A stretch of DNA of 64,000 nucleotides. Origin: Theocolax elegans. Lineage: Eukaryota; Arthropoda; Insecta; Hymenoptera; Cerocephalidae. A model generated the notes under the pieces. It saw nothing but the letters and a program-made list of their open reading frames with translations. It had not been told where the DNA came from and did no database searches. Shown here in pieces: positions 3,261-57,899 of the stretch (positions within the stretch are counted from its first letter, which is position 1; every line of letters begins with the position of its first letter). The stretch lies in contig CM047429.1 in assembly GCA_026168455.1 (NCBI GenBank), positions 5,793,125-5,857,124 on the forward strand, given 5' to 3'. Both the position numbers and the translations under genes were made by a program.

Positions 3261-3304
3261 ATAGTCTGAAGAGATTGTCAGACCACGCCAACGAAACGTT
3301 GACT
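3261..3304 (+). ncRNA. Hammerhead-like motif at the 5' end of PLE-A
   Basis: The sequence CTGAAGA (3266-3272), an imperfect stem II, then GAAACGTT (3293-3300) matches the arrangement at 21378-21412 at the other end of the same PLE. Penelope-like elements are known to carry hammerhead ribozymes in their terminal repeats. Here AGTC directly before TGAAGAG pairs with GACT after GTT only if C3 of the core is used in the stem, so this copy looks degenerate and probably inactive. Confidence 0.55.
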
Positions 3305-26032: not shown

Positions 26033-29000
26033 CCGAAGAGGTGGAGAAATGCTTAATGCACCATGACTGGAGCCATGCAAGACTCCCCGTGTGTGGGACT
26101 CTCCTACCGAAGGATGTCGATAGGCATACCCACTAAAACTCCACCTCTTTTCTTACCTTTATTCCCCCGCGGAAACCGCCGCAAGGCATTACTTCGCGGG
26201 GGGAGGCACGGCTAGATTAGCCCACTACTGTTGCTATCGCAACTCTTCTATCCTCGTCTCTTCTGATGAGACCCAGCCTGTCCACTACGGACGTACAGAG
26301 GGTCACTACCGCGTTCCATCCCTCCTGGGAGCCAAGCAGGCACGCCCCGATGCCCTCAGGGGTGAGGGGACCGCTCCAAGTGATTTGAAACTGGTCCCGT
26401 TCCTCCCTGAAACGAGGACACCGTAGGAGGACGTGTTCCACGTCTTCGTCCACCCCTGAACAATCCGGGCACTCTGCGCTACCGTAGACCCCTATACGAA
26501 ATAGGTAGCTACGGAAGCATCCGTGCCCGGTCAACACCTGGGTAAGCTGGAAACTGACGAAGCCGTGTTTCCTGCTCGCCCACTCCCGGATCCGCGGGAT
26601 GATGCGGTAGGTCCAGCGGCCGTCTCTGGCTGAGTCCCATCTCCGCTGCCACTCCTCTACGGTCCGCAATGACCATAGGTTATGGCAGCGATTCTCTTCT
26701 ACGCGTCGCCCACCCTCACGGTGTCTTTCAGCTCTCTCGGCTGCCAGGAGGTCGAAGGGGGCGGTCCCCGCGATCACCGAGAGCGCAATGTCAGATACGG
26801 TTCGGTACGCTCGGGCCACCCTTAGCGCAGCTATCCTGCAGGCTCTCTGACACGGAGCACCAAAGCTCTTGTGCCTGTTCAGGGCATCAGCCCAGATAGG
26901 AGCTCCGTATAAAATTACGGAGCTCACCACCGAGGCAAGGAGAGACCTTTGCGGTTGCTGGGGTCCCCCGATGTTGGGCATGATGCCCGCCAGCGCACGG
27001 GCCACCTTTGCCGCCTTTGGGCCTGCGTTCGCGAGATGGTGTTTGAACGACAGCCGCGCGTCTAGTGTGACCCCTAAATACTTCAACGTTTTCACCGACC
27101 GTATCCGTTCTTTACCTACCGTGAAGGTGGCGGTCCTCTCCTTTTTTGTGCGAGAGATGAGCACCGCCTCCGTTTTTTCCGCCGCCAGACTAAGTCCGTG
27201 GTCTCTCAACCAAGTGGCGACCACTTCTATAGAGACGTCTCCGAGATATTCGATCTCTTCGACACTCTTTGCGACCACCACTAGCGCCACGTCGTCCGCG
27301 AAAGCCACCATCGAGACACCCTCCGGAAGTTGCTGCCTAAGCAGGCCGTCATAGACAACGTTCCAGAGTAGGGTCCCAATGACTGAACCCTGCGGCACGC
27401 CTCCCGTGATGTTGTTGGAGTGCACACCGTCGTCGGTGTCGTAGAGCAGAGTACGGTCAGTCAGGTAACTCGAGGTGACCTCCCTGAGATAGAGTGGCAC
27501 TTGGAAGTGCTGCAGGGACAGCATGATGTCGTCCCATCTGGCAGAGTTGAAGGCATTCCGGATGTCCAAGGTGATGATGGCACACATCCGCCTTGCACTC
27601 CGACCAGCATTGATGGCGTTTGTGGCTATGCCAACAACTCTGCCTACAGCATCCATGGTCGATCGACCCTTTCGGAAGCCGAACTGGTTGTCGGAGAGGT
27701 CTCCGGCCCGACCGATGGCCTCTGCAAGCCTGGCGCAGATCACCCGCTCCAGGAGCTTCCCGACTATATCCAGTAGACAGAGCGGGCGGTAAGATGATGG
27801 CTCCTCCGGGGGTTTGTTTCCCTTTGGTAGGAGTACCAGCCTCTGCGTCTTCCACTAGGCCGGGAAGCAACCTTCTCTTATGCATGCGTTGAATGCGTCC
27901 AGGAACAAGCCCGGAGCACTCATCGCCGCTGTCTTGACGGCCAGGCCAGGTATTCCGTCAGGCCCTGGGGCTTTACGTACGGAAATACCCTTAGCGGCCA
28001 TCCTCAGTTCGGCTTCACTAATGTCTGGCGACTCGGCTGCACCAATGGTGGCCATCAGGCCCGTCTCTGCTGCCCTTTTCCGATGTTCTGGAAACAGGTG
28101 GCGGTCGACTCCGTCCAGAAAAACTGGGTCGGTGGGTGCAACAGCTCCCCCGGGGTTGATCTTATTCATAACCGTTTTATACGGTCTGCCCCAGGGGTCA
28201 TGGTCCACCTCCTCACAGAGCTCCCGCCAACACCTTCTCTTGGCAGCCTTGATGGCCACCTTGAGATCCCTCCGCTTTTGTTCGTATTCTGCGGAACGAT
28301 CTTGGAACCGCGGTGTTCCCCTCGCTCTTTGGTGCAGCCTTCTGGCACGCAGGCACTCACGTCTCTTTTCTGCGATGTCCTCACTCCACCAGATTATCGG
28401 TGGGCGGCCGCGAGGGTTAAACTTCACGGCCATAGACGCATCGCAAGCCGCTGTTAGGGCATTCGTGAGGCCTCGTGCTTTTTCTTCGGCGGTTCCCTCC
28501 ACTTTTGCCCCCTCAAGGGAGCAGAAGAACGTCTCACGATCAAACGTGGCTGGTGCCCATCTCTCTCTTACTCCTCTTCCTGCTCTCTTTGTCCTCCCGC
28601 TGGTCAGCTGGAGCTGGTACACGAGTGCTTGGTGGTCACTACCCGTGTAACGATCGCTAACTTTCCAGCCGAGTCCCCCTCTCCCCATCAATCTAGGATC
28701 GACGAAGGTGAGGTCGACTATGGACGACTTGCCGGCTTTTGTGAAAGTCGGGGTTGTCCCTGTGTTAGCGATCTCCAGCCCCAGTAGAGCGAACGCCTCG
28801 AGAAGTGCGCGACCACGCGCGTTGGTCTTGGCGCTACCCCAGTCCGTCGCTCAAGCATTAAAGTCCCCACCGATTGCGACCGGTAGCCGTGAGGACCGAG
28901 CACTGGTGACGACTGCATCCAGAGATCTCGCAAAGTCCTCGGTGGAATCGCTGGGCGGGAAGTAGCAGCTGTACATGCGTACCCCCGCCACCTCCACCCA

Positions 29001-29153
29001 GGTGAAGCTGGGAAGGGGGGCGACCATCTTTCTGGAGATGTGTATATTTTCACAGACCCAGATGGCCGCCTTGCCCGTGGCATCCCTTACCCAGTTCGCC
29101 TTCTCGAGATCCCGGAACTCCTCGCTGATAATCGCTACGTCCGCTCTCTCCTC
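26033..29153 (-). pseudogene. R1-clade LINE (Waldo-like), 5' truncated: endonuclease and reverse transcriptase
   Basis: Minus-strand reading gives an AP endonuclease part (ADVAIISEEFRDL near 29140, GGDFNA near 28860, GSDHQAL near 28630), the RT with FGFRKGRSTMDAV, GGVPQGSVIGTLLWN and FADDVALVV (about 27280-27305), and a C-terminal zinc motif CPDCSG..EHVLLRC near 26420-26475. In-frame stops occur at 28851-28853 (after FNA) and 27855-27857 (after CFPA); the frame is otherwise continuous to 26217. A poly-A tail follows. ORF1 and the endonuclease start are absent. R1-clade elements of Waldo type insert into (ACAY)n repeats, and this one is bordered by TG/AC repeats on both sides. Confidence 0.9.
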
Positions 29154-31250
29154 ATGTGTGTGTGTGTATGTGTGTGTGTGTGTGTGTGTGTGCGCGTGCG
29201 TGTGAATGTGTAATTGTGTGTGTGCGTGTGAGAATGTGTGTAAATTTACACGGTTAAGAGTATGTTTGAGAGTGTATGAATGTGCACACAATTTAACAAA
29301 TAAAAAAGTGCTTGGTACAGAAGATTACTCTTTTATACTTATACCTGGGTGAAAATATTTTATAAAATTTTTATAAAAATTTTATAAAATTTATTTAAAT
29401 AATTATTATAAAATTTTATATGTAATTTATCCATATAGAATTATATATCTTTTTATAATTTTTGTATAATATTCTATAAAATAAACGTATGATAATAGGT
29501 AATTATTTTCACTCATGAAAATCAAATAAAGTTGACTTTAGTGAACCTTTTTAGGGAGCCAAAAACAGCATTTTAGTCCCTCCGGGGATAAATTAAATTG
29601 CAGAGGGCAATAATGAATATTTATTGATCATTAAATTAATAAACAAGTTGTTACTTTCAATAATTTTTTTTTAATATTTTTTACTAAAGATATAAAAAGT
29701 CATTTACTTCTAAGGACAAAATTTTATTTTCAAATTTTTATTGGTTTCAGGGGTCATGGTCCACCTCCTCACAGAGCTCCCGCCAACACCTTCTCTTGGC
29801 AGCCTTGATGGCCACCTTGAGATCCCTCCGCTTTTGTTCGTATTCTGCGGAACGATCTTGGAACCGCGGTGTTCCCCTCGCTCTTTGGTGCAGCCTTCTG
29901 GCACGCAGGCACTCACGTCTCTTTTCTGCGATGTCCTCACTCCACCAGATTATCGGTGGGCGGCCGCGAGGGTTAAACTTCACGGCCATAGACGCATCGC
30001 AAGCCGCTGTTAGGGCATTCGTGAGGCCTCGTGCTTTTTCTTCGGCGGTTCCCTCCACTTTTGCCCCCTCAAGGGAGCAGAAGAACGTCTCACGATCAAA
30101 CGTGGCTGGTGCCCATCTCTCTCTTACTCCTCTTCCTGCTCTCTTTGTCCTCCCGCTGGTCAGCTGGAGCTGGTACACGAGTGCTTGGTGGTCACTACCC
30201 GTGTAACGATCGCTAACTTTCCAGCCGAGTCCCCCTCTCCCCATCAATCTAGGATCGACGAAGGTGAGGTCGACTATGGACGACTTGCCGGCTTTTGTGA
30301 AAGTCGGGGTTGTCCCTGTGTTAGCGATCTCCAGCCCCAGTAGAGCGAACGCCTCGAGAAGTGCGCGACCACGCGCGTTGGTCTTGGCGCTACCCCAGTC
30401 CGTCGCTCAAGCATTAAAGTCCCCACCGATTGCGACCGGTAGCCGTGAGGACCGAGCACTGGTGACGACTGCATCCAGAGATCTCGCAAAGTCCTCGGTG
30501 GAATCGCTGGGCGGGAAGTAGCAGCTGTACATGCGTACCCCCGCCACCTCCACCCAGGTGAAGCTGGGAAGGGGGGCGACCATCTTTCTGGAGATGTGTA
30601 TATTTTCACAGACCCAGATGGCCGCCTTGCCCGTGGCATCCCTTACCCAGTTCGCCTTCTCGAGATCCCGGAACTCCTCGCTGATAATCGCTACGTCCGC
30701 TCTCTCCTCATGTGTGTGTGTGTATGTGTGTGTGTGTGTGTGTGTGTGCGCGTGCGTGTGAATGTGTAATTGTGTGTGTGCGTGTGAGAATGTGTGTAAA
30801 TTTACACGGTTAAGAGTATGTTTGAGAGTGTATGAATGTGCACACAATTTAACAAATAAAAAAGTGCTTGGTACAGAAGATTACTCTTTTATACTTATAC
30901 CCTGGGTGAAAATATTTTATAAAATTTTTATAAAAATTTTATAAAATTTATTTAAATAATTATTATAAAATTTTATATGTAATTTATCCTATAGAATTAT
31001 ATATCTTTTTTATAAATTTTTGTATAATATTCTATAAAATAAACGTATTATAATATGTAATTTATTTTTCACTCTGAAAATCAATAAAGTTGACTTTATT
31101 GACCTCTTTTTAGGGAGCAAAAACGCATTTTAGTCCCTCCGGGGATAAAGTAAAATTGGAGGGCAATAATGAATATTATTGATCATTAAATTATAAAATT
31201 TGTTACTTTCAATAATTTTTTTTTAATATTTTTTACTAAAGATATAAAAA
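28192..31250. repeat. Direct tandem duplication, period 1,556 bp
   Basis: The stretch from CAGGGGTCATGG at 28192 is repeated from CAGGGGTCATGG at 29748. Each copy contains the LINE endonuclease part, the (TG)n tract and about 500 bp of AT-rich flank. The LINE parts look identical, including the same stop codon; the AT-rich parts carry small indels and lose similarity near 31250. The second endonuclease copy (29748-30709) is therefore a duplicate, not a second insertion. Confidence 0.9.
29154..29290 (+). repeat. (TG)n microsatellite at the 5' side of the LINE
   Basis: TGTGTG with TGTA and TGCG variants follows directly on the truncated LINE; the duplicate copy lies at about 30710-30846. The histidine/threonine-rich frames read across it are shadows. 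Confidence 0.85.
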
Positions 31251-35356: not shown

Positions 35357-37083
35357 ATGTCTAGCTATCCGAAAAGTGACAAATCGAGTAGTAATCGTGA
35401 TGCAAAACCACGGAAACGAAAATTCCATGGTAATCAATTCACAACAGAATCAGACGATACAGAGTGCAACACAAGTAGTACTGAGAGAAAATTAGCCACA
35501 GCTAGCACCGAGAACATCATTGTGCATCAAACTCACTGCTATCGAATAATCGAGTTTGTCACAGTATTTTTTGCAATTTCTGATATTGTAATTTGCAGAT
35601 CTTGCAAACAAAATATACAATTTTCAGAGAGCGGACATCGAGGCTTAGGTTTCAAAATTTTATTATTGTGTATGTGTGGTCATAGAGAAATAAATTCAGG
35701 ACCGTTTATAAACACTGGTTTCGAAATAAATAGACGAATTGTTTTTGTTATGAGGCTTTTCGGTGTTGGACGAGAAGGTATCAATGTGTTTTGTGGACTT
35801 ATGGATATATGTAAGGTTTAGCAAAATCAACGTATGATCAAATTGTACAGCATTTATATACAGCGTCAAAATCAATGTTCAAAAGCGTTTGTGAAAAAGC
35901 TGTCAAAGAATAGAAAGAAAAAATATAGAGAATGATAGATCTGCAGACTGTTTGAAAGTTTCTGGTGATGGATCCTGGAAAAAACGAGGTTTTACTTCAT
36001 TGTTTGGTGTTACAATGCTCGTTGCATATTACTCTGGCAAAGTAGTCGACCTTATTGTAAAAAGTGCATATTGTCATTCATGTGCTTTACAAAAGAATAT
36101 ATTAGACGAAGAAGAATTTGCAGAATGGTATAATGATCATAAAGAATCATGCTCTTCAAATCACGATGGTTCAACAGGGAAGATGGAGGTAGATTCAATT
36201 GTGAAGATGTTTTTGAGATCTGTTGAAAATTTTGGAGTAAAGTATACGAATTACATCGGCGACGGTGATTCGAAAACTTTCAATGGTATTGTAAAAATGA
36301 ATCCATATGGTGATGATTACCCTGTGACAAAAAATGAGTGCGTGGGACACGTACAAATGCGCATGGGTACTCGACTCCGAAATAAAAGGAAGGAAGAGAA
36401 GCTTGGAGGAAAAAAGCGTCTAAAAGAGAGTTTCATCAAAAAGTTGACAATATATTATGGTTTAGCAATTCAAAGGAATATTCACTCTGTCCAAGATATG
36501 AAAAAGGCTGTGATGGCAACGCTGGATCATTATTGTTCAACTGATGAATCTCCTCGTCACGAGAATTGTCCGACAGGCACTGACAGCTGGTGTGAATGGC
36601 GCAAAGCCGAAGCTATGAATCGTCTTGCATCCTTCAAACATTCTACTCGATTGATTGACGAAAAAGTGGAGGAACATATTCATCCAATCTACGAAGAACT
36701 TTCGAATGACGATCTCATGACGCGATGCTTAGGTGGACACACGCAAAATTCGAACGAATCGTTCAACTCCACTGTCTGGCGCATAACTCCGAAACATCTC
36801 AATTCTGGTTAAAAATCGTAGAAATTGCTGCGTATATGGCTGCAGGAATGTTCAATGAAGGATATTCAGCAGTTCTGCATACCATGCAATTACTCAATTT
36901 GAAAATTGGCCAGCAATGTAAAGTGTTTGCGGATAATGTCGACAACGGATTGAACGAGAAAGACGACGTTCGTCTCTTTCCAGTAAGGAAGCTCGTACGG
37001 CCCGTAGACTTGAATAACTTCAACAAAATGAGTTCCATGAGGAAGCTGAAGGTCTATTGTATGGCGCAGGAATAGCTGATTAG
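35357..37083 (+). pseudogene. Kolobok/Mutator-like transposase, inactivated
   Basis: The ATG at 35357 starts MSSYPKSDKS, then KPRKRKFHGN, as in insect proteins of the Mutator-like transposase family. The frame stops at 35819-35821, and further stops occur near 35910-35934. It resumes with VSGDGSWKKRG (first catalytic Asp region, near 35958), YIGDGDSKTF (second, near 36255), ECVGHVQMRMGTR (near 36337) and CLGGHTQNSNESFN (near 36726). A shift near 36810 continues as LKIVEIAAYMA, and the family ending YGAGIAD closes at the TAG at 37081-37083 after another shift. DDE assignments follow the family pattern. Confidence 0.85.
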
Positions 37084-40164: not shown

Positions 40165-40702
40165 TGTCATAAAATCTTTCTCAATGGGATGTACTAAATA
40201 CCTAATATGTAAATTCCTTATGGATACAAAGTGAAAATTTAGCTAAGCGTATTCTACATCGATTATAATAAATTATACATTTATAATAAATTAATATATA
40301 ATTTTATTCAAGTGTTTTTTACTATGAGCATGTGTTTGAACATGTGTAAAAGCACGTTATTTTTCACATGCCAAATTGGCTCGAAACCAAGTTATTTCGC
40401 ATGTGAAAATTAATTAATTTTTTATAAAATACATTTCACACTGATTGTGATTATGTACCAAGCATATCTTTCCCATAGTCAACAATATAAAAAATAGTTT
40501 ATATGTATAGAATTTTTATCGATCTTCCCAAGTCAAATGTAGTTGTAGGGTAAAAGAAAAAAATTTTAATGCATTTTTCTTTTTGTAACGTTTCGGTGGT
40601 CAATACCACCCTCTACATACTGAAAAAATTTTATTTATAAATAATTTTTTTGCACAACTCAGATAGTGAAAATGAATATAAAAAAAGTGAAAATAATACC
40701 TT
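40165..40702. repeat. Palindrome arm spacer and terminal piece of PLE-C
   Basis: Inverse of about 51822-52356. It includes an ACATGTG/CACATG-rich repeat near 40335-40400 (related sequence near 55733), the GATCTTCCC motif near 40520, and the PLE-C end with a hammerhead-like motif (minus strand, 40585-40620: stem II GGTGGT/ACCACC, then GAAACGTT). The right edge TGAAAATAATACCTT (40688-40702) is the target duplication of the PLE-B array. Confidence 0.7.
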
Positions 40703-40764
40703 TTTTTAAATAATTGTTACGATGATGAGGGTCACACAGTAAAAACACAAATTTTTACTTTTTA

Positions 40765-40806
40765 GTACAACGTTTCGTCTGCTTATTTGCAGACCTCTTC
40801 AGGTAC
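40765..40806 (-). ncRNA. Minimal type I hammerhead ribozyme of PLE-B (copy 1)
   Basis: Minus strand: GTAC, CTGAAGA, one G, GTCTGC-AAATAA-GCAGAC, GAAACGT, T, then GTAC. Stem I is GTAC/GTAC, stem II 6 bp, and stem III only the palindrome ACGT, which in Penelope ribozymes works as a dimer. Predicted cleavage is after GTT. All core bases are present; one extra G follows A9. Confidence 0.8.
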
Positions 40807-41046
40807 TGAAATATTTATTTAACACAACTGTATAAATTATAACATTACATCAATATCAATATAGACAATTATAGAAAACCGTTATATACCTATGACACTG
40901 AACAAACGAAAACAATTAATACTGCTCAAGGAGCTAAGTCGAATAACCAGAACATATGTAAAGCACCTGTATTTATATCAAAACAAATTTTGAATGTGTA
41001 AGTAAAACCTCAATTGTATTATCTACATACATAGGTCAACGTTAAA

Positions 41047-43385
41047 TCAAACCATTATATTTGTATATTGTCGGTGTAGAAATTGTGTATCTTCTTTTCT
41101 ATTTAAAGTACCGTTATAATAATTAATATATAACATTTCTGAAATTAAACGTTTTTTATAACAAGGTTCATGGTCTAATATTTTTACATTCATCCAATTA
41201 AAATCATGATCTTTATTATTTGCAATATGTGCAGTAACAACTGCTTTCGGGTTATTATTTTTTTGATGTTCTTTAATTCTTGTTTTAAGACCACGTTTTG
41301 TTTCACCTGTATATGTAGCCAGACAATTTTTACAATTAAACTTATATACTACACCAGTCATATCCCACTTCGATGTTTTGTCTTTACCTAAAGTTATAAC
41401 ATTATCTAATTTTTTGCACATTAACGGACAAACATTTATATTGTATTTTTTTAACATTTTTGAACATTTATTATAAAAATCTCTGTTATACGGTAGTGAT
41501 ATTGTACATATTGTAGGTCGCTTTTTCATAAATTTGTTGTTATTTTCATATTTTATTTTTCTTAATCTATTTTCAATAGCCGAGTTAATAAATTTCAACG
41601 GATAGTCATTCATTCTCAGTAATTCCTTAACTATATTGATATTATCCTTATGAAATTGTTGATGAGACAATTTTAACGCTCTGTCTATTAAATTATACAC
41701 AATATTGCGCTTCTGTTGAACAGTATGATTAGATTTAAAACTCAATAACCTAGTAGAATTTGATGTTTTTCTAAACCAATTCGTAAAAATATTATTATTC
41801 TTTTTGATAAGTAAAATATCTAGAAAATTTATACAATTATTTGTTTCTATCTCATGTGTAAATTTTAAACGTTCATTATAATTATTAAAAACATTGAGAA
41901 CTAAATTTACATGATCTTTGTGTATACATAAAATAGTATCGTCAACATATCTGAAGTAAAAAATCGGAGAACAATTAAATTTTTCTTTTAATTCTAATAA
42001 ACAATGAGTTTCCAAATCATCCATCACTAAATCCGCAAATAATGGTGATATTGGTGAACCCATTGGAGAACCAAAAATTTGTTTATATATTTTATTATTA
42101 AACGTAAAGAAAGTATTGTCAAACAAAAACCGTATGATATTGCGAATTTCATCAAATGGTATCTTACATTTATTATGTATAAAATTAAATCGCCTATCAA
42201 GACTGTCAAGGACTTCATTGCACGGAATGTTAGTAAATAAAGAGCTAACGTCTAACGACAACATAATATAGTCAGCTGGTATAATAATATTTTCTAATTT
42301 TCCTTTTAATTCAAAACTGTTGTTTATATGAGATTTTGGTTTAGGTATGATATTTTAATCTCATCATAAATTATTTTAGCTAAAAAATGTGTTGGACTAT
42401 TAATTGTGGAAATAATCGGTCTTAAAGGAAAATTTATTTTATGTATTTTGGAAGTCCATATGCTTTCGCTAACAACGTGTTGGTTTGAGTTAAAGAATTT
42501 TTGTGATAGACTCTTGTTAAGCATTCATTATTATTTAAATTTTTCAAAATTGCATAAACATCAGATTGAAGCTTTTTCAACGGGTTCTTATTTTGAGGAA
42601 TATATGTATTCTTATCACTTAATAAATTAGTCATTTTATCTAAATAGTCATTTTTATTTAAACAAACAGTTAAATTACCTTTATCAGAATTTGTGAAAAA
42701 TATGTCTGGATTGTCTATCAAGAATTTTTTTGTAGCTATTAACTCATTATTTAATTCTCGATTATTGTAAGTTATGTGTTTTGAATGTCTTGCTTCAAAT
42801 TTGATATTTTTAACAATAGTTTCTCTTATTTCATTTTTTATATCCGCATTTATGTCAGTGTTCTCTAAGCTGCTTTCTACGTTTTTTATTATATTTACTA
42901 CATCTTTATTAGAAAATTCCGAATTACAATTAAACTTTCTCCCTAAAGACACTAAATTTATCACTTCATTAGGAATATCAACATCCGTTAAATTTTTAAT
43001 CCATTGACCTTTATGCTTATTATATTCCTTAGTTTTATTAAATTTAATTAGATTTAATAATTTTTTCTCTAGTAATCTTGAAATTTCTTTATAAACTTTT
43101 TTACATTTCATTTCGGTAAATTTGAAAAATTCATCTAAAATATTTTCCGATATTAAACTATTATTAATCTTATTCTTTAATTTATTTAATGATGTGTATA
43201 AATAGTTTATGTGCACATGAATGTCATTAATTTCTAATTTAAGAATACGGAAAGATTGAGAGTTTGTATGCACTTTAAGAAACGATTTACAAGAATTACT
43301 ATAAAACGAAATATTGTTCAAATTTTTAAACACGTTCTTTATATGTTTAGGGATAACCTCGTGACTTCTGCAAGGCATCTGCAAG
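41047..43385 (-). pseudogene. PLE-B copy 1: reverse transcriptase with GIY-YIG endonuclease
   Basis: Minus strand. The N-terminal region (43385-42434) has WIKNLTDVDIPNEVINLVSLG and SDKGNLTVCLNKNDYLDKM; the RT follows with LSLDVSSLFTNIPCNEV, GSPMGSPISPLFADLVMDD and YFRYVDDTILCIH (catalytic, about 41935-41973). The C terminus has VYKFNCKNCLATYTGETKRG, the GIY-YIG motif. Two single-base losses in T/A runs near 42353 and 42446 break the frame compared with copy 3. Otherwise nearly complete. Family role: RT plus endonuclease for target-primed insertion. Confidence 0.92.
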
Positions 43386-43396
43386 GATTCGTGCAC

Positions 43397-44226
43397 AGTC
43401 CAACACATTTTTTAGCTAAAATAATTTATGATGAGATTAAAAATATCATACCTAAACCAAAATCTCATATAAACAACAGTTTTGAATTAAAAGGAAAATT
43501 AGAAAATATTATTATACCAGCTGACTATATTATGTTGTCGTTAGACGTTAGCTCTTTATTTACTAACATTCCGTGCAATGAAGTCCTTGACAGTCTTGAT
43601 AGGCGATTTAATTTTATACATAATAAATGTAAGATACCATTTGATGAAATTCGCAATATCATACGGTTTTTGTTTGACAATACTTTCTTTACGTTTAATA
43701 ATAAAATATATAAACAAATTTTTGGTTCTCCAATGGGTTCACCAATATCACCATTATTTGCGGATTTAGTGATGGATGATTTGGAAACTCATTGTTTATT
43801 AGAATTAAAAGGAAAATTTAATTGTTCTCCGATTTTTACTTCAGATATGTTGACGATACTATTTTATGTATACACAAAGATCATGTAAATTTAGTTCTCA
43901 ATGTTTTTAATAATTATAATGAACGTTTAAAATTTACACATGAGATAGAAACAAATAATTGTATAAATTTTCTAGATATTTTACTTATCAAAAAGAATAA
44001 TAATATTTTTACGAATTGGTTTAGAAAAACATCAAATTCTACTAGGTTATTGAGTTTTAAATCTAATCATACTGTTCAACAGAAGCGCAATATTGTGTAT
44101 AATTTAATAGACAGAGCGTTAAAATTGTCTCATCCACAATTTCATAAGGATAATATCAATATAGTTAAGGAATTACTGAGAATGAATGACTATCCGTTGA
44201 AATTTATTAACTCGGCTATTGAAAAT
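43397..44226 (+). pseudogene. PLE-B copy 2, 5' and 3' truncated
   Basis: Starts at SPTHFLAKIIYDEIKN in the RT, directly after the inverted N terminus of copy 1 (junction near 43390). One T is missing in the run before the catalytic box (near 43833), so SPIF shifts frame before FRYVDD. It ends at NSAIEN, where the second dimer begins after GAAAATGAATAT, a short overlap with the flank. It lacks the endonuclease. Confidence 0.9.
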
Positions 44227-44317
44227 GAATATAAAAAAAGTGAAAATAATACCTTTTTTTAAATAATTGTTACGATGATGAGGGTCACACAGTAAAAACA
44301 CAAATTTTTACTTTTTA

Positions 44318-44359
44318 GTACAACGTTTCGTCTGCTTATTTGCAGACCTCTTCAGGTAC
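44318..44359 (-). ncRNA. Minimal type I hammerhead ribozyme of PLE-B (copy 3)
   Basis: This is the exact duplicate of 40765-40806, 3,553 bp away: stem I GTAC/GTAC, 6-bp stem II, GAAACGTT. All core bases are present. Confidence 0.8.
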
Positions 44360-44599
44360 TGAAATATTTATTTAACACAACTGTATAAATTATAACATTA
44401 CATCAATATCAATATAGACAATTATAGAAAACCGTTATATACCTATGACACTGAACAAACGAAAACAATTAATACTGCTCAAGGAGCTAAGTCGAATAAC
44501 CAGAACATATGTAAAGCACCTGTATTTATATCAAAACAAATTTTGAATGTGTAAGTAAAACCTCAATTGTATTATCTACATACATAGGTCAACGTTAAA

Positions 44600-46940
44600 T
44601 CAAACCATTATATTTGTATATTGTCGGTGTAGAAATTGTGTATCTTCTTTTCTATTTAAAGTACCGTTATAATAATTAATATATAACATTTCTGAAATTA
44701 AACGTTTTTTATAACAAGGTTCATGGTCTAATATTTTTACATTCATCCAATTAAAATCATGATCTTTATTATTTGCAATATGTGCAGTAACAACTGCTTT
44801 CGGGTTATTATTTTTTTGATGTTCTTTAATTCTTGTTTTAAGACCACGTTTTGTTTCACCTGTATATGTAGCCAGACAATTTTTACAATTAAACTTATAT
44901 ACTACACCAGTCATATCCCACTTCGATGTTTTGTCTTTACCTAAAGTTATAACATTATCTAATTTTTTGCACATTAACGGACAAACATTTATATTGTATT
45001 TTTTTAACATTTTTGAACATTTATTATAAAAATCTCTGTTATACGGTAGTGATATTGTACATATTGTAGGTCGCTTTTTTCATAAATTTGTTGTTATTTT
45101 CATATTTTATTTTTCTTAATCTATTTTCAATAGCCGAGTTAATAAATTTCAACGGATAGTCATTCATTCTCAGTAATTCCTTAACTATATTGATATTATC
45201 CTTATGAAATTGTTGATGAGACAATTTTAACGCTCTGTCTATTAAATTATACACAATATTGCGCTTCTGTTGAACAGTATGATTAGATTTAAAACTCAAT
45301 AACCTAGTAGAATTTGATGTTTTTCTAAACCAATTCGTAAAAATATTATTATTCTTTTTGATAAGTAAAATATCTAGAAAATTTATACAATTATTTGTTT
45401 CTATCTCATGTGTAAATTTTAAACGTTCATTATAATTATTAAAAACATTGAGAACTAAATTTACATGATCTTTGTGTATACATAAAATAGTATCGTCAAC
45501 ATATCTGAAGTAAAAAATCGGAGAACAATTAAATTTTTCTTTTAATTCTAATAAACAATGAGTTTCCAAATCATCCATCACTAAATCCGCAAATAATGGT
45601 GATATTGGTGAACCCATTGGAGAACCAAAAATTTGTTTATATATTTTATTATTAAACGTAAAGAAAGTATTGTCAAACAAAAACCGTATGATATTGCGAA
45701 TTTCATCAAATGGTATCTTACATTTATTATGTATAAATTAAATCGCCTATCAAGACTGTCAAGGACTTCATTGCACGGAATGTTAGTAAATAAAGAGCTA
45801 ACGTCTAACGACAACATAATATAGTCAGCTGGTATAATAATATTTTCTAATTTTCCTTTTAATTCAAAACTGTTGTTTATATGAGATTTTGGTTTAGGTA
45901 TGATATTTTTAATCTCATCATAAATTATTTTAGCTAAAAAATGTGTTGGACTATTAATTGTGGAAATAATCGGTCTTAAAGGAAAATTTATTTTATGTAT
46001 TTTTGGAAGTCCATATGCTTTCGCTAACAACGTGTTGGTTTGAGTTAAAGAATTTTTGTGATAGACTCTTGTTAAGCATTCATTATTATTTAAATTTTTC
46101 AAAATTGCATAAACATCAGATTGAAGCTTTTTCAACGGGTTCTTATTTTGAGGAATATATGTATTCTTATCACTTAATAAATTAGTCATTTTATCTAAAT
46201 AGTCATTTTTATTTAAACAAACAGTTAAATTACCTTTATCAGAATTTGTGAAAAATATGTCTGGATTGTCTATCAAGAATTTTTTTGTAGCTATTAACTC
46301 ATTATTTAATTCTCGATTATTGTAAGTTATGTGTTTTGAATGTCTTGCTTCAAATTTGATATTTTTAACAATAGTTTCTCTTATTTCATTTTTTATATCC
46401 GCATTTATGTCAGTGTTCTCTAAGCTGCTTTCTACGTTTTTTATTATATTTACTACATCTTTATTAGAAAATTCCGAATTACAATTAAACTTTCTCCCTA
46501 AAGACACTAAATTTATCACTTCATTAGGAATATCAACATCCGTTAAATTTTTAATCCATTGACCTTTATGCTTATTATATTCCTTAGTTTTATTAAATTT
46601 AATTAGATTTAATAATTTTTTCTCTAGTAATCTTGAAATTTCTTTATAAACTTTTTTACATTTCATTTCGGTAAATTTGAAAAATTCATCTAAAATATTT
46701 TCCGATATTAAACTATTATTAATCTTATTCTTTAATTTATTTAATGATGTGTATAAATAGTTTATGTGCACATGAATGTCATTAATTTCTAATTTAAGAA
46801 TACGGAAAGATTGAGAGTTTGTATGCACTTTAAGAAACGATTTACAAGAATTACTATAAAACGAAATATTGTTCAAATTTTTAAACACGTTCTTTATATG
46901 TTTAGGGATAACCTCGTGACTTCTGCAAGGCATCTGCAAG
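44600..46940 (-). pseudogene. PLE-B copy 3: near-complete ORF with homopolymer frameshifts
   Basis: Same architecture as copy 1, about 2.3 kb. The frame is open from the N terminus through LSLDVSSLFTNIPCNEV (46963-45743). It is broken by one missing A/T near 45737 and one extra T in the run near 45074. The catalytic YFRYVDD lies near 45510 and the GIY-YIG motif near 44850. Copies 1 and 3 differ almost only at homopolymer runs, so the ancestral ORF was probably intact when the dimer was duplicated. Confidence 0.92.
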
Positions 46941-46951
46941 GATTCGTGCAC

Positions 46952-48304
46952 AGTCCAACACATTTTTTAGCTAAAATAATTTATGATGAGATTAAAAATA
47001 TCATACCTAAACCAAAATCTCATATAAACAACAGTTTTGAATTAAAAGGAAAATTAGAAAATATTATTATACCAGCTGACTATATTATGTTGTCGTTAGA
47101 CGTTAGCTCTTTATTTACTAACATTCCGTGCAATGAAGTCCTTGACAGTCTTGATAGGCGATTTAATTTTATACATAATAAATGTAAGATACCATTTGAT
47201 GAAATTCGCAATATCATACGGTTTTTGTTTGACAATACTTTCTTTACGTTTAATAATAAAATATATAAACAAATTTTTGGTTCTCCAATGGGTTCACCAA
47301 TATCACCATTATTTGCGGATTTAGTGATGGATGATTTGGAAACTCATTGTTTATTAGAATTAAAAGGAAAATTTAATTGTTCTCCGATTTTTTACTTCAG
47401 ATATGTTGACGATACTATTTTATGTATACACAAAGATCATGTAAATTTAGTTCTCAATGTTTTTAATAATTATAATGAACGTTTAAAATTTACACATGAG
47501 ATAGAAACAAATAATTGTATAAATTTTCTAGATATTTTACTTATCAAAAAGAATAATAATATTTTTACGAATTGGTTTAGAAAAACATCAAATTCTACTA
47601 GGTTATTGAGTTTTAAATCTAATCATACTGTTCAACAGAAGCGCAATATTGTGTATAATTTAATAGACAGAGCGTTAAAATTGTCTCATCCACAATTTCA
47701 TAAGGATAATATCAATATAGTTAAGGAATTACTGAGAATGAATGACTATCCGTTGAAATTTATTAACTCGGCTATTGAAAATAGATTAAGAAAAATAAAA
47801 TATGAAAATAACAACAAATTTATGAAAAAGCGACCTACAATATGTACAATATCACTACCGTATAACAGAGATTTTTATAATAAATGTTCAAAAATGTTAA
47901 AAAAATACAGTATAAATGTTTGTCCGTTAATGTGCAAAAAATTAGATAATGTTATAACTTTAGGTAAAGACAAAACATCGAAGTGGGATATGACTGGTGT
48001 AGTATATAAGTTTAATTGTAAAAATTGTCTGGCTACATATATAGGTGAAACAAAACGTGGTCTTAAAACAAGAATTAAAGAACATCAAAAAAATAATAAC
48101 CCGGAAGCAGTTGTTACTGCACATATTGCAAATAATAAAGATCATGATTTTAATTGGATGAATGTAAAAATATTAGACCATGAACCTTGTTATAAAAAAC
48201 GTTTAATTTCAGAAATGTTATATATTAATTATTATAACGGTACTTTAAATAGAAAAGAAGATACACAATTTCTACACCGACAATATACAAATATAATGGT
48301 TTGA
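46952..48304 (+). CDS. PLE-B copy 4: open RT-endonuclease frame, 5' truncated
   Basis: The frame is uninterrupted from SPTHFLAKIIYDEIKN to the TGA at 48302. Upstream codons from 46811 are antisense N-terminal sequence of copy 3, so the apparent start there is not real. It keeps TNIPCNEV, MGSPISPLFADLVMDD, YFRYVDDTILC (47389-47421), KKRPTICTISLPYNRDF and the GIY-YIG VYKFNCKNCLATYIGETKRG. It lacks the N-terminal third, so it should not work alone. Confidence 0.9.
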   Translation, partial: SPTHFLAKIIYDEIKNIIPKPKSHINNSFELKGKLENIIIPADYIMLSLDVSSLFTNIPCNEVLDSLDRRFNFIHNKCKIPFDEIRNIIRFLFDNTFFTFNNKIYKQIFGSPMGSPISPLFADLVMDDLETHCLLELKGKFNCSPIFYFRYVDDTILCIHKDHVNLVLNVFNNYNERLKFTHEIETNNCINFLDILLIKKNNNIFTNWFRKTSNSTRLLSFKSNHTVQQKRNIVYNLIDRALKLSHPQFHKDNINIVKELLRMNDYPLKFINSAIENRLRKIKYENNNKFMKKRPTICTISLPYNRDFYNKCSKMLKKYSINVCPLMCKKLDNVITLGKDKTSKWDMTGVVYKFNCKNCLATYIGETKRGLKTRIKEHQKNNNPEAVVTAHIANNKDHDFNWMNVKILDHEPCYKKRLISEMLYINYYNGTLNRKEDTQFLHRQYTNIMV

Positions 48305-48486
48305 TTTAACGTTGACCTATGTATGTAGATAATACAATTGAGGTTTTACTTACACATTCAAAATTTGTTTTGATATAAATACAGGTGCTTTACATATGTT
48401 CTGGTTATTCGACTTAGCTCCTTGAGCAGTATTAATTGTTTTCGTTCGTTCAGTGTCATAGGTATATAACGGTTTTCTATAATTGC

Positions 48487-48514
48487 AGTGCAAATAAGCA
48501 GACGAAACGTTGTA
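48487..48514 (+). ncRNA. Remnant of the PLE-B hammerhead ribozyme
   Basis: GCAAATAAGCAGACGAAACGTTGTAC matches the 3' half of the ribozymes at 40765 and 44318, but about 65 bp with stem I, CTGAAGA and half of stem II are deleted at 48487. It cannot fold into a hammerhead. Confidence 0.8.
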
Positions 48515-48884
48515 CTAAAAAGTAAAAATTTGTGTTTTTACTGTGTGACCCTCATCATCGTAACAATTATTTAAAATACACAATGGAGGGTGAAAAAATC
48601 TCAAAAATGAAAATAATACCTTCTAATATCAATATCATAATTAAGTGTATAATATGAAAACTGATTTCGTCGAAAGTCGATTTAAATTTGTTTTTCTTTT
48701 ACCTCATCGTAAACAAGGAAGCGTCAAATAGAAGTATACACGACGAAAACTTTGACAATATAAGAGTACATATACAATTCGCGCTTTCTTAAATAGTGAA
48801 GAATCGAGAGCGAGCCAATGTTTACATTTTTTCTATTGATGACGCACAGGTTCATGTACATTGCTTACAATACATCAAACTAAT

Positions 48885-50550
48885 TTAACGTGTTTTCATT
48901 TTGAATATAATGTGCGAATACTGCTTATTTAATTTAATTAAGTCTTCTTGTTTATTTATAGAATTTTTTTGCAAATTAATATGTACCATTTCAGATGCAA
49001 TTCTTTTACCATAAATTGTTTCTTTAACCAAAATTTTGAAATTTCGCCAATCAAAATCATGTTTATTATTTTGAATATGTTGAAAAACGACAGACTCTTT
49101 TCTGTCCTTATGTTCGTTAATTCGTGTGTTTATTTGTCTCTTTGTCTGTCCTACATATGAAGCGTTTCAGTCTAAACAATTTAATTTATATACTACATTA
49201 TTTTGAGCATTCTTATCAATTTTGTCCTTCCCTTTAATTATAATGTTATTTAATTTATTTTCAACAGTTGGAATCGTTTTTATTCCGTGTTTTTTTAAGT
49301 TAACTGACATGTTTTCATAGAGGCCTTTGGAATATGGTAAAGTGAGAAATTGTTTATAATTAACCACTTCTTTTGTGTTTTGCTTATTCTGCTGATTATT
49401 CAAAATTGCTAAACGTTTTTTTAATATATTTTTCAATAAATTGTTCTGGATAGTTATTTTTTATTAAATAATCCTTTATTTTGTTAATATTAACATAATG
49501 GAATTTTTTATTAGATAACTTGATTGCTCTATCCACCAGATTATAAATCATAGCAATTTTTTGAGAAATTGGATGTGCCGATTCAAAATTTAAGAAACGA
49601 GCCGAAAACGTAGGTTTAGTGTACCAGTCTATAATAATTTTATTATTATTTTTAATCAATAATGTATCCAGAAAACTAATACTGTCATTATTTTCTAATT
49701 CAAAAGTAAACTTCAATTTTTCATCATAAGAATTAAAAATTTGTAACATTTCGTCGATTTTATCAGTAGGGGAATACATGTTATTATATCGTCAACATAT
49801 CTATAGTAAAAAATTGGTTTAAAACTTAAACAATTGGTCTTAAAGATACATTTTCTTTGTGAATTTTCGGTAATCCGTAACATTTTGCTAATGATATATA
49901 TTTTGATAATGATGTATTTGTTTGCGTTAACCTTGAAGATTTATATTTTTTATCTAAAAAACCCCTGTCATTCCATTTTTTAAGAAATTTATAAGTGCAA
50001 TTTTGTAACGATTTTAGCGGGTTTTTTTGTATGGGTCTGTACGAAGTCCTATCGGATAATAATGTCTCCATTTTATTAATATATTCAGTTTTATTCATAA
50101 TGACAGTAGTATTCCCTTTATCAGCGTATGTTATTATTATATCTCTATGTTTATTTATAAATTCTTTTGTTTCTTTATATTTATGAAATAAGATTCTATT
50201 TTTTAGAGGTACGTGTTCAGTTTTTTCTTTTAAATGTGTGTCTAAACTTTCGACCAAATTTTGTCTTAATAAATCAGTGGATTCTTCATTAATTTCATTC
50301 GTATACACAAAATTTTCCAAAGATTTAATATAATTTACCAGTGTGTTGTTATTCTGAGAGAAAGGCAAACTAAATTTTGGACCTAAAGAAATTATATCTG
50401 ATACATTTTTAGGAACTTCAACATTTGTCAAGTTTTTTATCCAACTGTCCGTGTTCATATTATTTTTTAATATATTTTGTGTGTGATTCTTAATTTTATT
50501 GTCATGTTTTTTATTTAAACAATCGCCAAGACGAGTGTTATTGTTTTTTT
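48885..50550 (-). pseudogene. PLE-C left copy: N-terminal, partial RT and GIY-YIG endonuclease
   Basis: Minus strand: SWIKNLTNVEVPKNVSDIISLGP (near 50440), ITYADKGNTTVIMNKTEY, AKCYGLPKIHKENVSLRPIV, then an internal deletion near 49832 that removes most of the RT up to KPIFYYRYVDD (near 49800), then KRLAILNNQQNKQNTKEVV and the endonuclease NVVYKLNCLD..ASYVGQTKRQINTRINEH, ending at the TAA at 48885-48887. Stops and frameshifts are present at 49167 and 49430. This family is distinct from PLE-A and PLE-B. Confidence 0.88.
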
Positions 50551-50592
50551 GGTTATTGGATATTGTTATTGGATATAGTTATTGGATATAGT

Positions 50593-51556
50593 TATGGAAG
50601 ATCTAGAGATTGATTGTTTAAGCAAATTAAGTTTTAAACCAATTTTTTACTATAGATATGTTAAAATGATTACCTACTGATAAAATCGACGAAATGTTAC
50701 AAATTTTTAATTCTTATGATGAAAAATTGAAGTTTACTTTTGAATTAGAGAATAATTCAGTATTAGTTTTCTGGATACATTATTGATTAAAAATAATAAT
50801 AAAATTATTATAGACTGGTACACTAAACCTACGTTTTCGGCTCATTTTTTAAATTTTTAATCGGCACATCCAATTTCTCAAAAAATTGCTATGGTTTATA
50901 ATCTGGTGGATAGAGCAATCAAGTTATCTAATAAAAAATTCCATCATGTTAATATTAACAAAATAAAGAATTATTTAATAAAAAATAACTATCCAGAACA
51001 ATTTATTGAAAAATATATTAGAAAACGTTTAGCAATTTTGAATAATCAGCAGAATAAGCAAAACACAAAAGAAGTGGTTAATTACAAACAATTTCTCACT
51101 TTACCATATTCCAAAGGCCTCTATGAAAACATGTCAGTTAACTTAAAAAAACACGGAATAAAAACGATTCCAACTGTTGTAAATAAATTAAATAACATTA
51201 TAATTAAAGGCAAAGACAAAATTGATAAGAATGCTCAAAATAATGTAGTATATAAATTAAATTGTTTAAACTGCAACGCTGCATATGTAGGACAGACAAA
51301 GAGACAAATAAACACACGAATTAACGAACATAAGAACAGAAAAGAGTCTGTCGATTTTCAACATATTCAAAATAATAAACATGATTTTGATTGGCGAAAT
51401 TTCAAAATTTTGGTTAAAGAAACAATTTATGGTAAAAGAATTGCATCTGAAATGATACATATTAATTTGCAAATAAATTCTATAAATAAACAAGAAGACT
51501 CAATTAAATTGTATAAGCAGTATTCGCACATTATATTCAAAATGAAAACATGTTAA
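50593..51556 (+). pseudogene. PLE-C right copy, 5' truncated
   Basis: Starts at MEDLEIDCLSKL in the RT, after three imperfect copies of a 14-bp motif (TTATTGGATATAG, 50552-50592). The catalytic box is damaged (YYRYVKM). From 50891 the frame is open through KRLAILNNQQNKQNT, NNVVYKLNCLNCNAAYVGQTKRQ (GIY-YIG) to the TAA at 51554. It faces the left copy head-to-head, the same geometry as the PLE-B dimers. Confidence 0.88.
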
Positions 51557-52356
51557 ATTAGTTTGATGTATTGTAAGCAATGTACATGAACCTGTGCGTC
51601 ATCAATAGAAAAAATGTAAACATTGGCTCGCTCTCGATTCTTCACTATTTAAGAAAGCGCGAATTGTATATGTACTCTTATATTGTCAAAGTTTTCGTCG
51701 TGTATACTTCTATTTGACGCTTCCTTGTTTACGATGAGGTAAAAGAAAAACAAATTTAAATCGACTTTCGACGAAATCAGTTTTCATATTATACACTTAA
51801 TTATGATATTGATATTAGAAGGTATTATTTTCACTTTTTTTATATTCATTTTCACTATCTGAGTTGTGCAAAAAAATTATTTATAAATAAAATTTTTTCC
51901 GTATGTAGAGGGTGGTATTGACCACCGAAACGTTACAAAAAGAAAAATGCATTAAAATTTTTTTCTTTTACCCTACAACTACATTTGACTCGGGAAGATC
52001 GATAAAAATTCTATACATATAAACTATTTTTTATATTGTTGACTATGGGAAAGATATGCTTGGTACATAATCACAATCAGTGTGAAATGTGTTTTATAAA
52101 AAATTAATTAATTTTCACATGCGAAATAACTTGGTTTCGAGCCAATTTGTCATGTGAAAAATAACGTGCTTTTACACATGTTCAAACACATGCTCATAGT
52201 AAAAAACACTTGAATAAAATTATATATTAATTTATTATAAATGTATAATTTATTATAATTGATGTAGAATACGCTTAGCTAAATTTTCACTTTGTATCCA
52301 TAAGGAATTTACATATTAGGTATTTAGTACATCCCATTGAGAAAGATTTTATGACA
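51557..52356. repeat. PLE-C 3' end and palindrome arm, right side
   Basis: 51557-51821 is the inverse of about 48608-48884. 51822-52356 is the inverse of 40165-40702. A hammerhead-like motif lies at 51901-51936 (stem II GGTGGT-ATTG-ACCACC, then GAAACGTTAC), but the core reads ATGTAGA instead of CTGANGA in both copies, so it is not expected to cleave. Confidence 0.7.
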
Positions 52357-56923: not shown

Positions 56924-57059
56924 TAGAATATTTATTTGTATAATAATATCGGTCTCTCCGAACCAAATGCTTTACTTTTAGAATAAAGCAGGCCTATCGT
57001 ACTCTTTGTCCACTATGGTTGGTGGAATTTCTCAGAGCACGGCCTTTTAATATAATTAA

Positions 57060-57128
57060 AGGCGTTTCGTCCTCGATCTCCAGCTTGGACTCCTCAGTAA
57101 GGAACTGGAGATCTTACCTTAGACGCCT
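57060..57128 (-). ncRNA. Type III hammerhead ribozyme, left arm
   Basis: Exact inverse of the ribozyme at 57472-57540, with all core bases: AGGCGTC, stem I TAAGG/CCTTA, CTGAGGA, stem II GTCC/GGAC, GAAACGCCT. The predicted cleavage is after the GTC, at 57122 on the minus strand. Loops 1 and 2 carry the same 9-nt complementarity. Confidence 0.88.
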
Positions 57129-57471
57129 GTCCCAAGATGATATGCGACGCCAGCAAGATGTTCTGCGGCTATATATATAGAAATTAGACGACGATCTCTC
57201 CAACGAGTGTAGAGAGATAGTCGTCTCCCTCTGGTGGTGGGAAAAGCCACCAGCCAGAGCGCGAATTTTTAGACCGTATCGCGAGTTATTTGTTACAAAA
57301 TTTTAACGCTCGGTAATATGTATATGTATAATAATATCGGTCTCTCCGAACCAAATGCTTTACCACCAGAGGGAGACGACTATCTCTCTACACTCGTTGG
57401 AGAGATCGTCGTCTAATTTCTATATATATAGCCGCAGAACATCTTGCTGGCGTCGCATATCATCTTGCGAC

Positions 57472-57540
57472 AGGCGTCTAAGGTAAGATCTCCAGTTCCT
57501 TACTGAGGAGTCCAAGCTGGAGATCGAGGACGAAACGCCT
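57472..57540 (+). ncRNA. Type III hammerhead ribozyme, right arm
   Basis: Stem III AGGCGT (57472-57477) with ACGCCT (57535-57540), 6 bp. H17 is C57478, so the triplet is GTC. Stem I TAAGG (57479-57483) with CCTTA (57498-57502). Core CTGAGGA at 57503-57509. Stem II GTCC (57510-57513) with GGAC (57528-57531), then GAA and A15.1 at 57532-57535. Both loops have 14 nt. Loop 1 GATCTCCAG (57487-57495) is the exact complement of loop 2 CTGGAGATC (57517-57525). Every conserved base is present, so cleavage is expected; type follows from stem III being open. Confidence 0.9.
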
Positions 57541-57899
57541 TTAATTATATTAAAAGGCCGTGCTCTGGGAAATTCCACCAACCATAGTGGACAAAGAGTA
57601 CGATAGGCCTGCTTTATTCTAAAAGTAAAGCATTTGGTTCGGAGAGACCGATATTATTATACATATACATATTACCGAACGTTAAAATTTTGTAATAGAA
57701 TATTTATTACCATTACCTTAATTATAACCTTATCATTCGTTGACTTCCTTTCATGCTAGAAATTAATAATGGGACAATAGACAACAATAAGTAATAAAAA
57801 AAAATTTTGGTTAGATTAATTTATTAATTTTCCTTATGGTGCACGTATAGAGTGTATTCCCACTCCTATTTACAGTCAGGGCAGGAGTTGATTTTCACC

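What the first reader, a model, noticed from the sequence alone, without database searches (positions are those of the whole stretch)
56937..57695. Retrozyme-like element with two complete type III hammerhead ribozymes in an insect-type genome
A 388-nt unit begins twice in tandem and once inverted between 13-bp target duplications, and each full arm carries a hammerhead with all catalytic bases (57060-57128 minus, 57472-57540 plus). Type III hammerheads on retrozymes are known mainly from plants and viroid-like RNAs, while animal retrozymes are described mostly with type I (recalled knowledge). The element could spread as self-cleaved circular RNA, a class rarely annotated.
Basis: partly seen in the sequence, partly recalled or inferred. 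Interest (0 to 1): 0.92.

Follow-up and report, generated by a model that had tools for sequence, protein, structure and literature searches.

The report
Insect jumping RNA with paired ribozymes
A short gene-free stretch of an insect genome encodes an RNA that should cut itself into small units, and the scars around its copies suggest that Penelope-type retrotransposons paste it into new places, which bears on the open question of what spreads these self-cutting RNAs in animals.

Summary
Window 56937-57695 lies between 13-bp target duplications and carries two complete type III hammerheads (minus 57060-57128, plus 57472-57540). It belongs to a young family (F1, 388-nt unit): 1283 places in this 658-Mb genome match its core and stems I-II, control 0. 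An unrelated second family (F2, 514 nt) also has type III hammerheads. In their commonest forms loops I and II are complementary over 9-12 nt.

The inversion is usual: 28 of 38 loci have units on both strands, RNA 3' ends outward, with AT-rich duplications (median 15 bp). Of 22 insertions with both ends classifiable, 21 end at site A on one side and at site B, about 35 nt further, on the other. Penelope-like elements (PLEs) here, one of them in this window, show the same form and one-sided tail. A published PLE enzyme starts reverse transcription at two sites that define such a tail (PMC11167929).

Best reading: a retrozyme inserted by PLE machinery, with a pseudoknotted type III ribozyme where animal retrozymes have type I. 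Self-cleavage, circular RNA and PLE dependence are inferred, not shown.

The parts
56924..56936 (.). left target-site duplication TAGAATATTTATT
56937..57695 (.). whole head-to-head retrozyme insertion (759 nt)
56937..57363 (-). minus arm: one full 388-nt unit (56937-57324) plus 39 nt of a second; outer end is site A
57060..57128 (-). type III hammerhead, copy 1; predicted cleavage between 57122 and 57121
57362..57695 (+). plus arm, 334 nt; outer end is site B
57472..57540 (+). type III hammerhead, copy 2; predicted cleavage between 57478 and 57479
   Evidence: RF00008 36.5 bits
57487..57495 (+). loop I stretch GATCTCCAG, complementary to loop II
57517..57525 (+). loop II stretch CTGGAGATC, complementary to loop I
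57637..57680 (+). possible RT-start hairpin (GTTCGG 57637-57642 / CCGAAC 57675-57680); site A (after 57663) lies in its loop, site B (57695) 15 nt past its 3' arm
   Evidence: suggestive only
57696..57708 (.). right target-site duplication
40703..48602 (.). Penelope-like element cluster in the same window, head-to-head, one end with a tail, 20-bp duplication (1 mismatch); candidate type of helper, not shown to be the helper
40772..40802 (-). minimal type I hammerhead of that PLE (second copy at 44325-44355)

Best explanation
It is a non-autonomous retrotransposon of the retrozyme kind. A tandem locus is transcribed; type III hammerheads, clamped by a long loop I-loop II pairing, cut the RNA into 388-nt units, which host ligase probably closes into circles (inferred). 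A Penelope-like enzyme binds the unit, cuts both strands of AT-rich DNA about 15 bp apart, and uses each cut end to prime reverse transcription: one from internal site A, the other from site B about 35 nt downstream (inferred from the ends). The two cDNAs run round the unit one or many times and are joined head-to-head. Shown: anatomy, copy number, duplications, A/B ends, the same footprint in PLEs here. Inferred: cleavage, circularity, which PLE family helps.
For: 1) Ribozyme: RF00008 match; 1283 places with core and stems I-II, control 0. 2) 32 of 40 element clusters from 38 loci have a duplication (median 15 bp among the 25 exact ones; 84% AT over all 32). Ends: A/B 21, A/A 1, B/B 0, ten with one end unclassified; 21 of 22 gives P 5e-6 against even odds. 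The A and B ranges were set. 3) Among the first 100 of 1283 places listed, the 20 neighbouring opposite-strand pairs within 1.5 kb that I counted by eye all run minus-then-plus. 4) F2: ends at u~178 and u~216; of 5 elements tested 3 gave a duplication (13-14 bp), and those 3 are A/B. 5) PLEs: 4 of 4 pairs fetched are palindromes (main arms 99.5-99.8%, shorter pieces 98.3-98.9%), duplications 13-15 bp, one tailed end (L068 by eye); the window PLE likewise. 6) Outward flanks of the 21 read ATT (A 18, T 27, T 23 of 42; T at +2 P 2e-4), the cleavage motif published for a PLE enzyme (PMC11167929). 7) The two arms of a locus are more alike than arms of different loci (median 0.7% vs 1.5%, 28 loci, permutation P 2e-4), as one template would give.
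Against: No RNA data. No PLE sharing sequence with F1 was found among the 24 loci compared; only short AT-rich matches. The RT-start hairpin is not significant in any family alone (P 0.06-0.77). Only 12 of 28 plus arms are as close to their own partner as to any other locus. F1 is too young to show selection on the ribozyme: 7 core positions tested P 0.34, and 17% of equal windows vary as little. F2 loop pairing shows only one-sided G-U changes plus 5 broken cells, no compensatory pair, and no support over shuffles. RNAfold prefers a non-hammerhead fold if pseudoknots are excluded. The A/A element L009 breaks the A/B rule. The published PLE study saw no strand difference in start site.
Confidence: 0.8

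Rival explanations
1. A LINE-type (non-PLE) machinery inserts the element, and inversions arise by ordinary twin priming.
For: Duplications of 11-24 bp fit target-primed insertion in general; a LINE-type RT gene lies in the window.
Against: Twin priming (recalled) leaves an internal break point, not a second fixed RNA 3' site, at the other outer end; here 21 of 22 insertions have A at one end and B at the other. The tail of about 35 nt and the head-to-head form match the PLEs here and PLE literature (PMC3846280, PMC11167929).
Confidence: 0.08
2. A satellite DNA multiplied by unequal exchange; the hammerhead is a passenger.
For: Arrays with 14 (L025) and 19 (L012) unit matches in one locus.
Against: 32 of 40 clusters are insertions with target duplications, most with fixed outer ends.
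Confidence: 0.04
3. PLE-inserted as above, but from linear multimer transcripts; the ribozyme is not needed for spread, as in vitro for one lizard PLE.
For: Ribozyme mutants of the lizard PLE still insert in vitro (PMC11167929). Units of one array often differ (for example L019, L025, L036).
Against: Core and stems kept in 1283 places, though the family is young; in L009, L013, L015, L023, L033 and L034 every variant is shared by all covering units on both strands, as a circle would give. Neither point is decisive.
Confidence: 0.25
4. The inverted arm is a snap-back copy of the first cDNA.
For: Self-priming was proposed for rotifer PLE palindromes (PMC3846280 passages).
Against: A snap-back copy would end at the same site at both ends; only 1 of 22 is A/A.
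Confidence: 0.07

Closest known systems
Metazoan non-LTR retrozymes (Cervera and de la Pena 2020, PMC7229834; passages read)
   Same: short non-coding tandem unit (388 nt, 43% GC), hammerhead, target duplications longer than 4 bp, PLEs in the same genome
   Different: type III hammerhead with a 9-nt loop-loop complement instead of type I; usually head-to-head with A/B ends (the word 'inverted' does not occur in that paper's main text)
Plant LTR retrozymes (PMC4918200, seen in search listing; described in PMC7761336 passages)
   Same: type III hammerhead on a non-autonomous retroelement
   Different: duplications of 11-24 bp, not 4; tandem 388-nt units, not LTRs round a central region
Penelope-like elements (PMC11167929 parts 1-2 of 4 and passages; PMC3846280 passages)
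   Same: head-to-head form, tail of 30-40 bp at one end, AT-rich target, ATT motif, hammerhead near the RT start
   Different: no RT/endonuclease gene; PLEs carry minimal type I hammerheads
Pseudoknotted type III hammerheads of termites, flies and HDV-like RNAs (PMC7936874 passages)
   Same: type III, loop I-loop II base pairing, insects
   Different: there about 4 nt (GCCR/YGGC) of an internal loop of a longer helix I pair with loop II; here two terminal loops pair over 9-12 nt, on a mobile repeat
pDo500 satellite of Dolichopoda cave crickets (PMC2837043 passages)
   Same: insect tandem repeat with hammerhead
   Different: 49-nt motif; its double form pairs stems I and II between two copies and closes stem III within one; the passages do not state the type, which I take not to be III (inference)

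Membership tests
Type III hammerhead ribozyme | CUGANGA...GAAA core, three stems, helix III open | tested here: met
   RF00008 match aligned end to end, one unpaired cell at the outermost pair; core plus stem II by pattern
Type III hammerhead ribozyme | reaches Rfam gathering score | tested here: not met
   36.5 against 48.5 bits; F2 at most 42.9. Not a defining trait of the ribozyme, but a curated limit
Type III hammerhead ribozyme | self-cleavage | not testable with these tools
   needs RNA assay
Metazoan non-LTR retrozyme | non-coding repeat of about 170-400 nt, tandem, low GC | tested here: met
   388 nt, GC 0.43; longest stop-to-stop ORF wholly inside the element 77 aa. F2 at 514 nt is longer
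Metazoan non-LTR retrozyme | type I hammerhead | tested here: not met
   type III; canonical type I in this genome: 16 matches at E up to 10, best 32.4 bits (E 8.7e-4), none over the cut-off of 34, 73 of 80241 candidates scored; the same search rings in 11 of 14 control genomes, none over cut-off
Metazoan non-LTR retrozyme | abundant circular RNA | not testable with these tools
   no reads
Plant LTR retrozyme | 4-bp duplication | tested here: not met
   11-24 bp
Plant LTR retrozyme | tRNA primer site and polypurine tract | not tested
   not searched for
Penelope-like element | RT plus GIY-YIG ORF | tested here: not met
   no ORF over 77 aa inside the element
Penelope-like element (insertion signature) | head-to-head copies, one end with 30-40 bp tail | tested here: met
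   21 of 22 A/B ends, about 35 nt apart
Penelope-like element (insertion signature) | shared RT-start hairpin | tested here: inconclusive
   3' arm ends 14-17 nt after A in all five families; joint P 0.004 for four, single P 0.06-0.77, chosen after looking

The most novel reading that the evidence does not exclude
Each insertion is one act of a two-subunit PLE enzyme: both strands of the target are cut and each primes its own cDNA on the same circular hammerhead RNA, one from site A and the other from site B, and the two are joined head-to-head. Retrozymes here would be parasites that keep only what that enzyme needs, the RT-start region plus any hammerhead, which might explain why type III stands in for type I in two unrelated families.
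Probability: 0.45. Interest if true: 0.82.

Novelty: new variant of a known kind. Interest (0 to 1): 0.64.

Why it matters
What moves animal retrozymes is an open question; PLEs were suggested because both carry type I hammerheads and occur together (PMC7761336 section 8). Here the ribozyme type differs, so the link rests on independent evidence, the insertion scar. The pattern of A at one end and B at the other also gives PLE integration a testable two-site model: the in vitro study saw both start sites but no difference between strands. A genome with over a thousand copies of the ribozyme core is a good place for circle-junction and helper assays.

Tried and rejected
Conservation test on F1 units: not significant; through an index slip only 7 of the core positions entered the core test. 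Covariation in 11 F2 ribozymes: none. Search for F1 sequence in 24 loci brought in by the GIY-YIG search (L046-L069): only short AT-rich matches. Rfam on four PLE pairs and on window 40500-52000: no hammerhead reported, although a direct scan finds minimal type I motifs in the window PLE, and none in L046-L069; one is visible by eye in L066. LTR or plant-type retrozyme: rejected on duplication length. Satellite only: rejected on dispersed insertions. Host not named; Hymenoptera is inferred from protein matches. Literature for a type III animal retrozyme: searches (open-licence PMC papers only; listings capped) showed none that I saw; PMC4209133 was not held. PMC7761336 mentions elements with type III hammerheads in bacteria or insects ('in preparation').

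Full report
Observation. The 388-nt unit, its inverted partner and the 13-bp duplication are real. Both hammerheads are exact and identical. In sense order each reads AGGCGU-C|UAAGG-loop I-CCUUA-CUGAGGA-GUCC-loop II-GGAC-GAA-ACGCCU: helix III is open, helices I and II are closed, so it is type III. Rfam agrees (RF00008, 36.5 bits, E 6.1e-6 for 1.2 kb) but below its cut-off of 48.5. Core plus stem II: 2 in the window, 0 in 100 shuffles.

Loops. Loops I and II are each 14 nt and hold GAUCUCCAG and CUGGAGAUC, a perfect 9-nt complement placed 3 nt from the 5' and 2 nt from the 3' side of each loop. Shuffled loops reach 9 with P 0.00045. Of 104 hammerheads in the fetched loci that match a core-and-stem pattern, 95 keep all nine pairs (three by G-U), seven break one or two, two differ in loop length. 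The nested hammerhead (-12.9) plus the loop duplex (-13.8) is close to the best pseudoknot-free fold (-28.3 kcal/mol), so both folds are possible.

Family F1. Blast in the window's own genome gave 309 matches as a lower bound (39 of 1145 candidates scored). A pattern over C17, stem I, core and stem II finds 633 forward and 650 reverse, control 0; a shorter one without stem I's 5' strand 781 and 800, control 0. I fetched 37 loci read off the capped list and used them with the window; the list is ranked by score, so the sample leans to young copies. One locus has 17 units on one strand and 2 on the other (L012).

Anatomy of insertions. 28 of these 38 loci have units of 100 nt or more on both strands. 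Of 40 clusters of 250 nt or more, 32 had a duplication passing my score and 8 did not. Exact ones: 25, median 15 bp; AT 84% over all 32. The outer ends were mapped on the unit, with ranges set: 21 insertions have A (u380-400, counting on past 388) at one end and B (u408-435) at the other, 1 is A/A (L009), none B/B, 10 have one end elsewhere or unreadable (two at u350 and u370; others one-sided, 5'-truncated copies). In one search the first 100 of 1283 places contain 20 neighbouring opposite-strand pairs within 1.5 kb, all minus-then-plus, counted by eye. Head-to-head junctions: 31 rows (L016 twice), 15 with overlap, 4 blunt, 12 with filler.

Family F2. The RF00008 genome search (68 of 79098 candidates scored; at E up to 10 it also rings in 7 of 14 control genomes, none over cut-off) returned 16 matches with E 1.3e-5 to 0.04, best 42.9 bits; the 12 regions fetched hold a second family with no blast match to F1. 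Unit 514 nt, at least 218 matches (38 of 804 candidates scored). In one copy the loops pair over 12 nt (P under 5e-5). Ends at u~178 and u~216; duplications of 13-14 bp in L074, L071 and L079, all A/B; L080 and L081 gave none. In 11 distinct ribozymes the loop helix is 95.9% paired; changes that keep pairing are one-sided G-U, there is no double change, and no support over shuffles.

Penelope-like elements. The GIY-YIG search gave 98 matches (150 of 1713 candidates scored), many as minus/plus neighbours a few kb apart. Four pairs fetched are palindromes with duplications of 13-15 bp and one end longer by roughly 27-48 nt (L068 by eye on the printed ends). The window holds one at 40703-48602 with a 20-bp duplication (1 mismatch) and a tail of about 27 nt; its ORFs match RVT_1. 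Minimal type I hammerheads sit at 40772 and 44325, minus strand. Canonical type I hammerheads were not found over cut-off (73 of 80241 candidates scored).

Why PLE machinery. A purified lizard PLE enzyme cuts both strands of AT-rich DNA at ATT and starts reverse transcription inside the RNA at two sites whose spacing equals the genomic tail; that study saw no difference between strands (PMC11167929). F1 flanks read outward as ATT. PLE pLTRs have carried an unrelated gene in trans (PMC3846280 passages). A stem whose loop holds A and whose 3' arm ends 14-17 nt after A is seen in F1, F2 and three PLEs; joint P 0.004 for four families but not significant singly, and chosen after inspection.

Template. 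Arms of one locus differ by a median 0.7% against 1.5% between loci (28 loci, P 2e-4), but only 12 of 28 are at least as close to their own partner as to any other locus. L012 shares 4 variants over all covering units on both strands, 2 of them private, and has 21 partial ones. This fits one template, circular or from one array; it does not prove a circle. The 388-nt circle is more folded than shuffles (-133.3 against -88.3, z -9.1, 40 shuffles) and the sense strand more than the antisense (-124.4).

Verdict. It works like an animal retrozyme and carries a PLE insertion scar, with a ribozyme of the other type. Cleavage, circles and helper identity need experiments.

Noticed in passing
window 40703-48602 and 48590-51855: Nested head-to-head Penelope-like elements, one inserted into another; ORFs of the first match RVT_1, the two pieces of the second tested gave no Pfam match.
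   Followed up: partly
window 40772-40802 and 44325-44355 (minus): Minimal type I hammerheads that Rfam does not report.
   Followed up: partly
window 3266-3297 (+): Degraded hammerhead-like motif CTGAAGA...CGAAAC, possibly a PLE relic.
   Followed up: no
L009 1543-3045 and window 56937-57695: Both have nearly the same head-to-head junction (u350 with u90 or u87, differing by 3 nt in an ACC repeat) but different duplications; L009 is the only A/A element. A copied junction or a hot spot; unexplained.
   Followed up: partly
C1:40267148-40268897 and others listed: An F1 subfamily with loop II CTGGGGATC; in the one copy whose loop I was shown (C1:22124177), loop I is unchanged, so the pair becomes G-U.
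   Followed up: partly
window 26217-29324 (-), 35895-36812 (+): LINE-type RT gene, partly repeated at 29747-30880, and a Mutator-like transposase.
   Followed up: no
L024 1484-1922 and 4223-4659: Two F1 copies with the same flanking duplication, apparently duplicated together.
   Followed up: no
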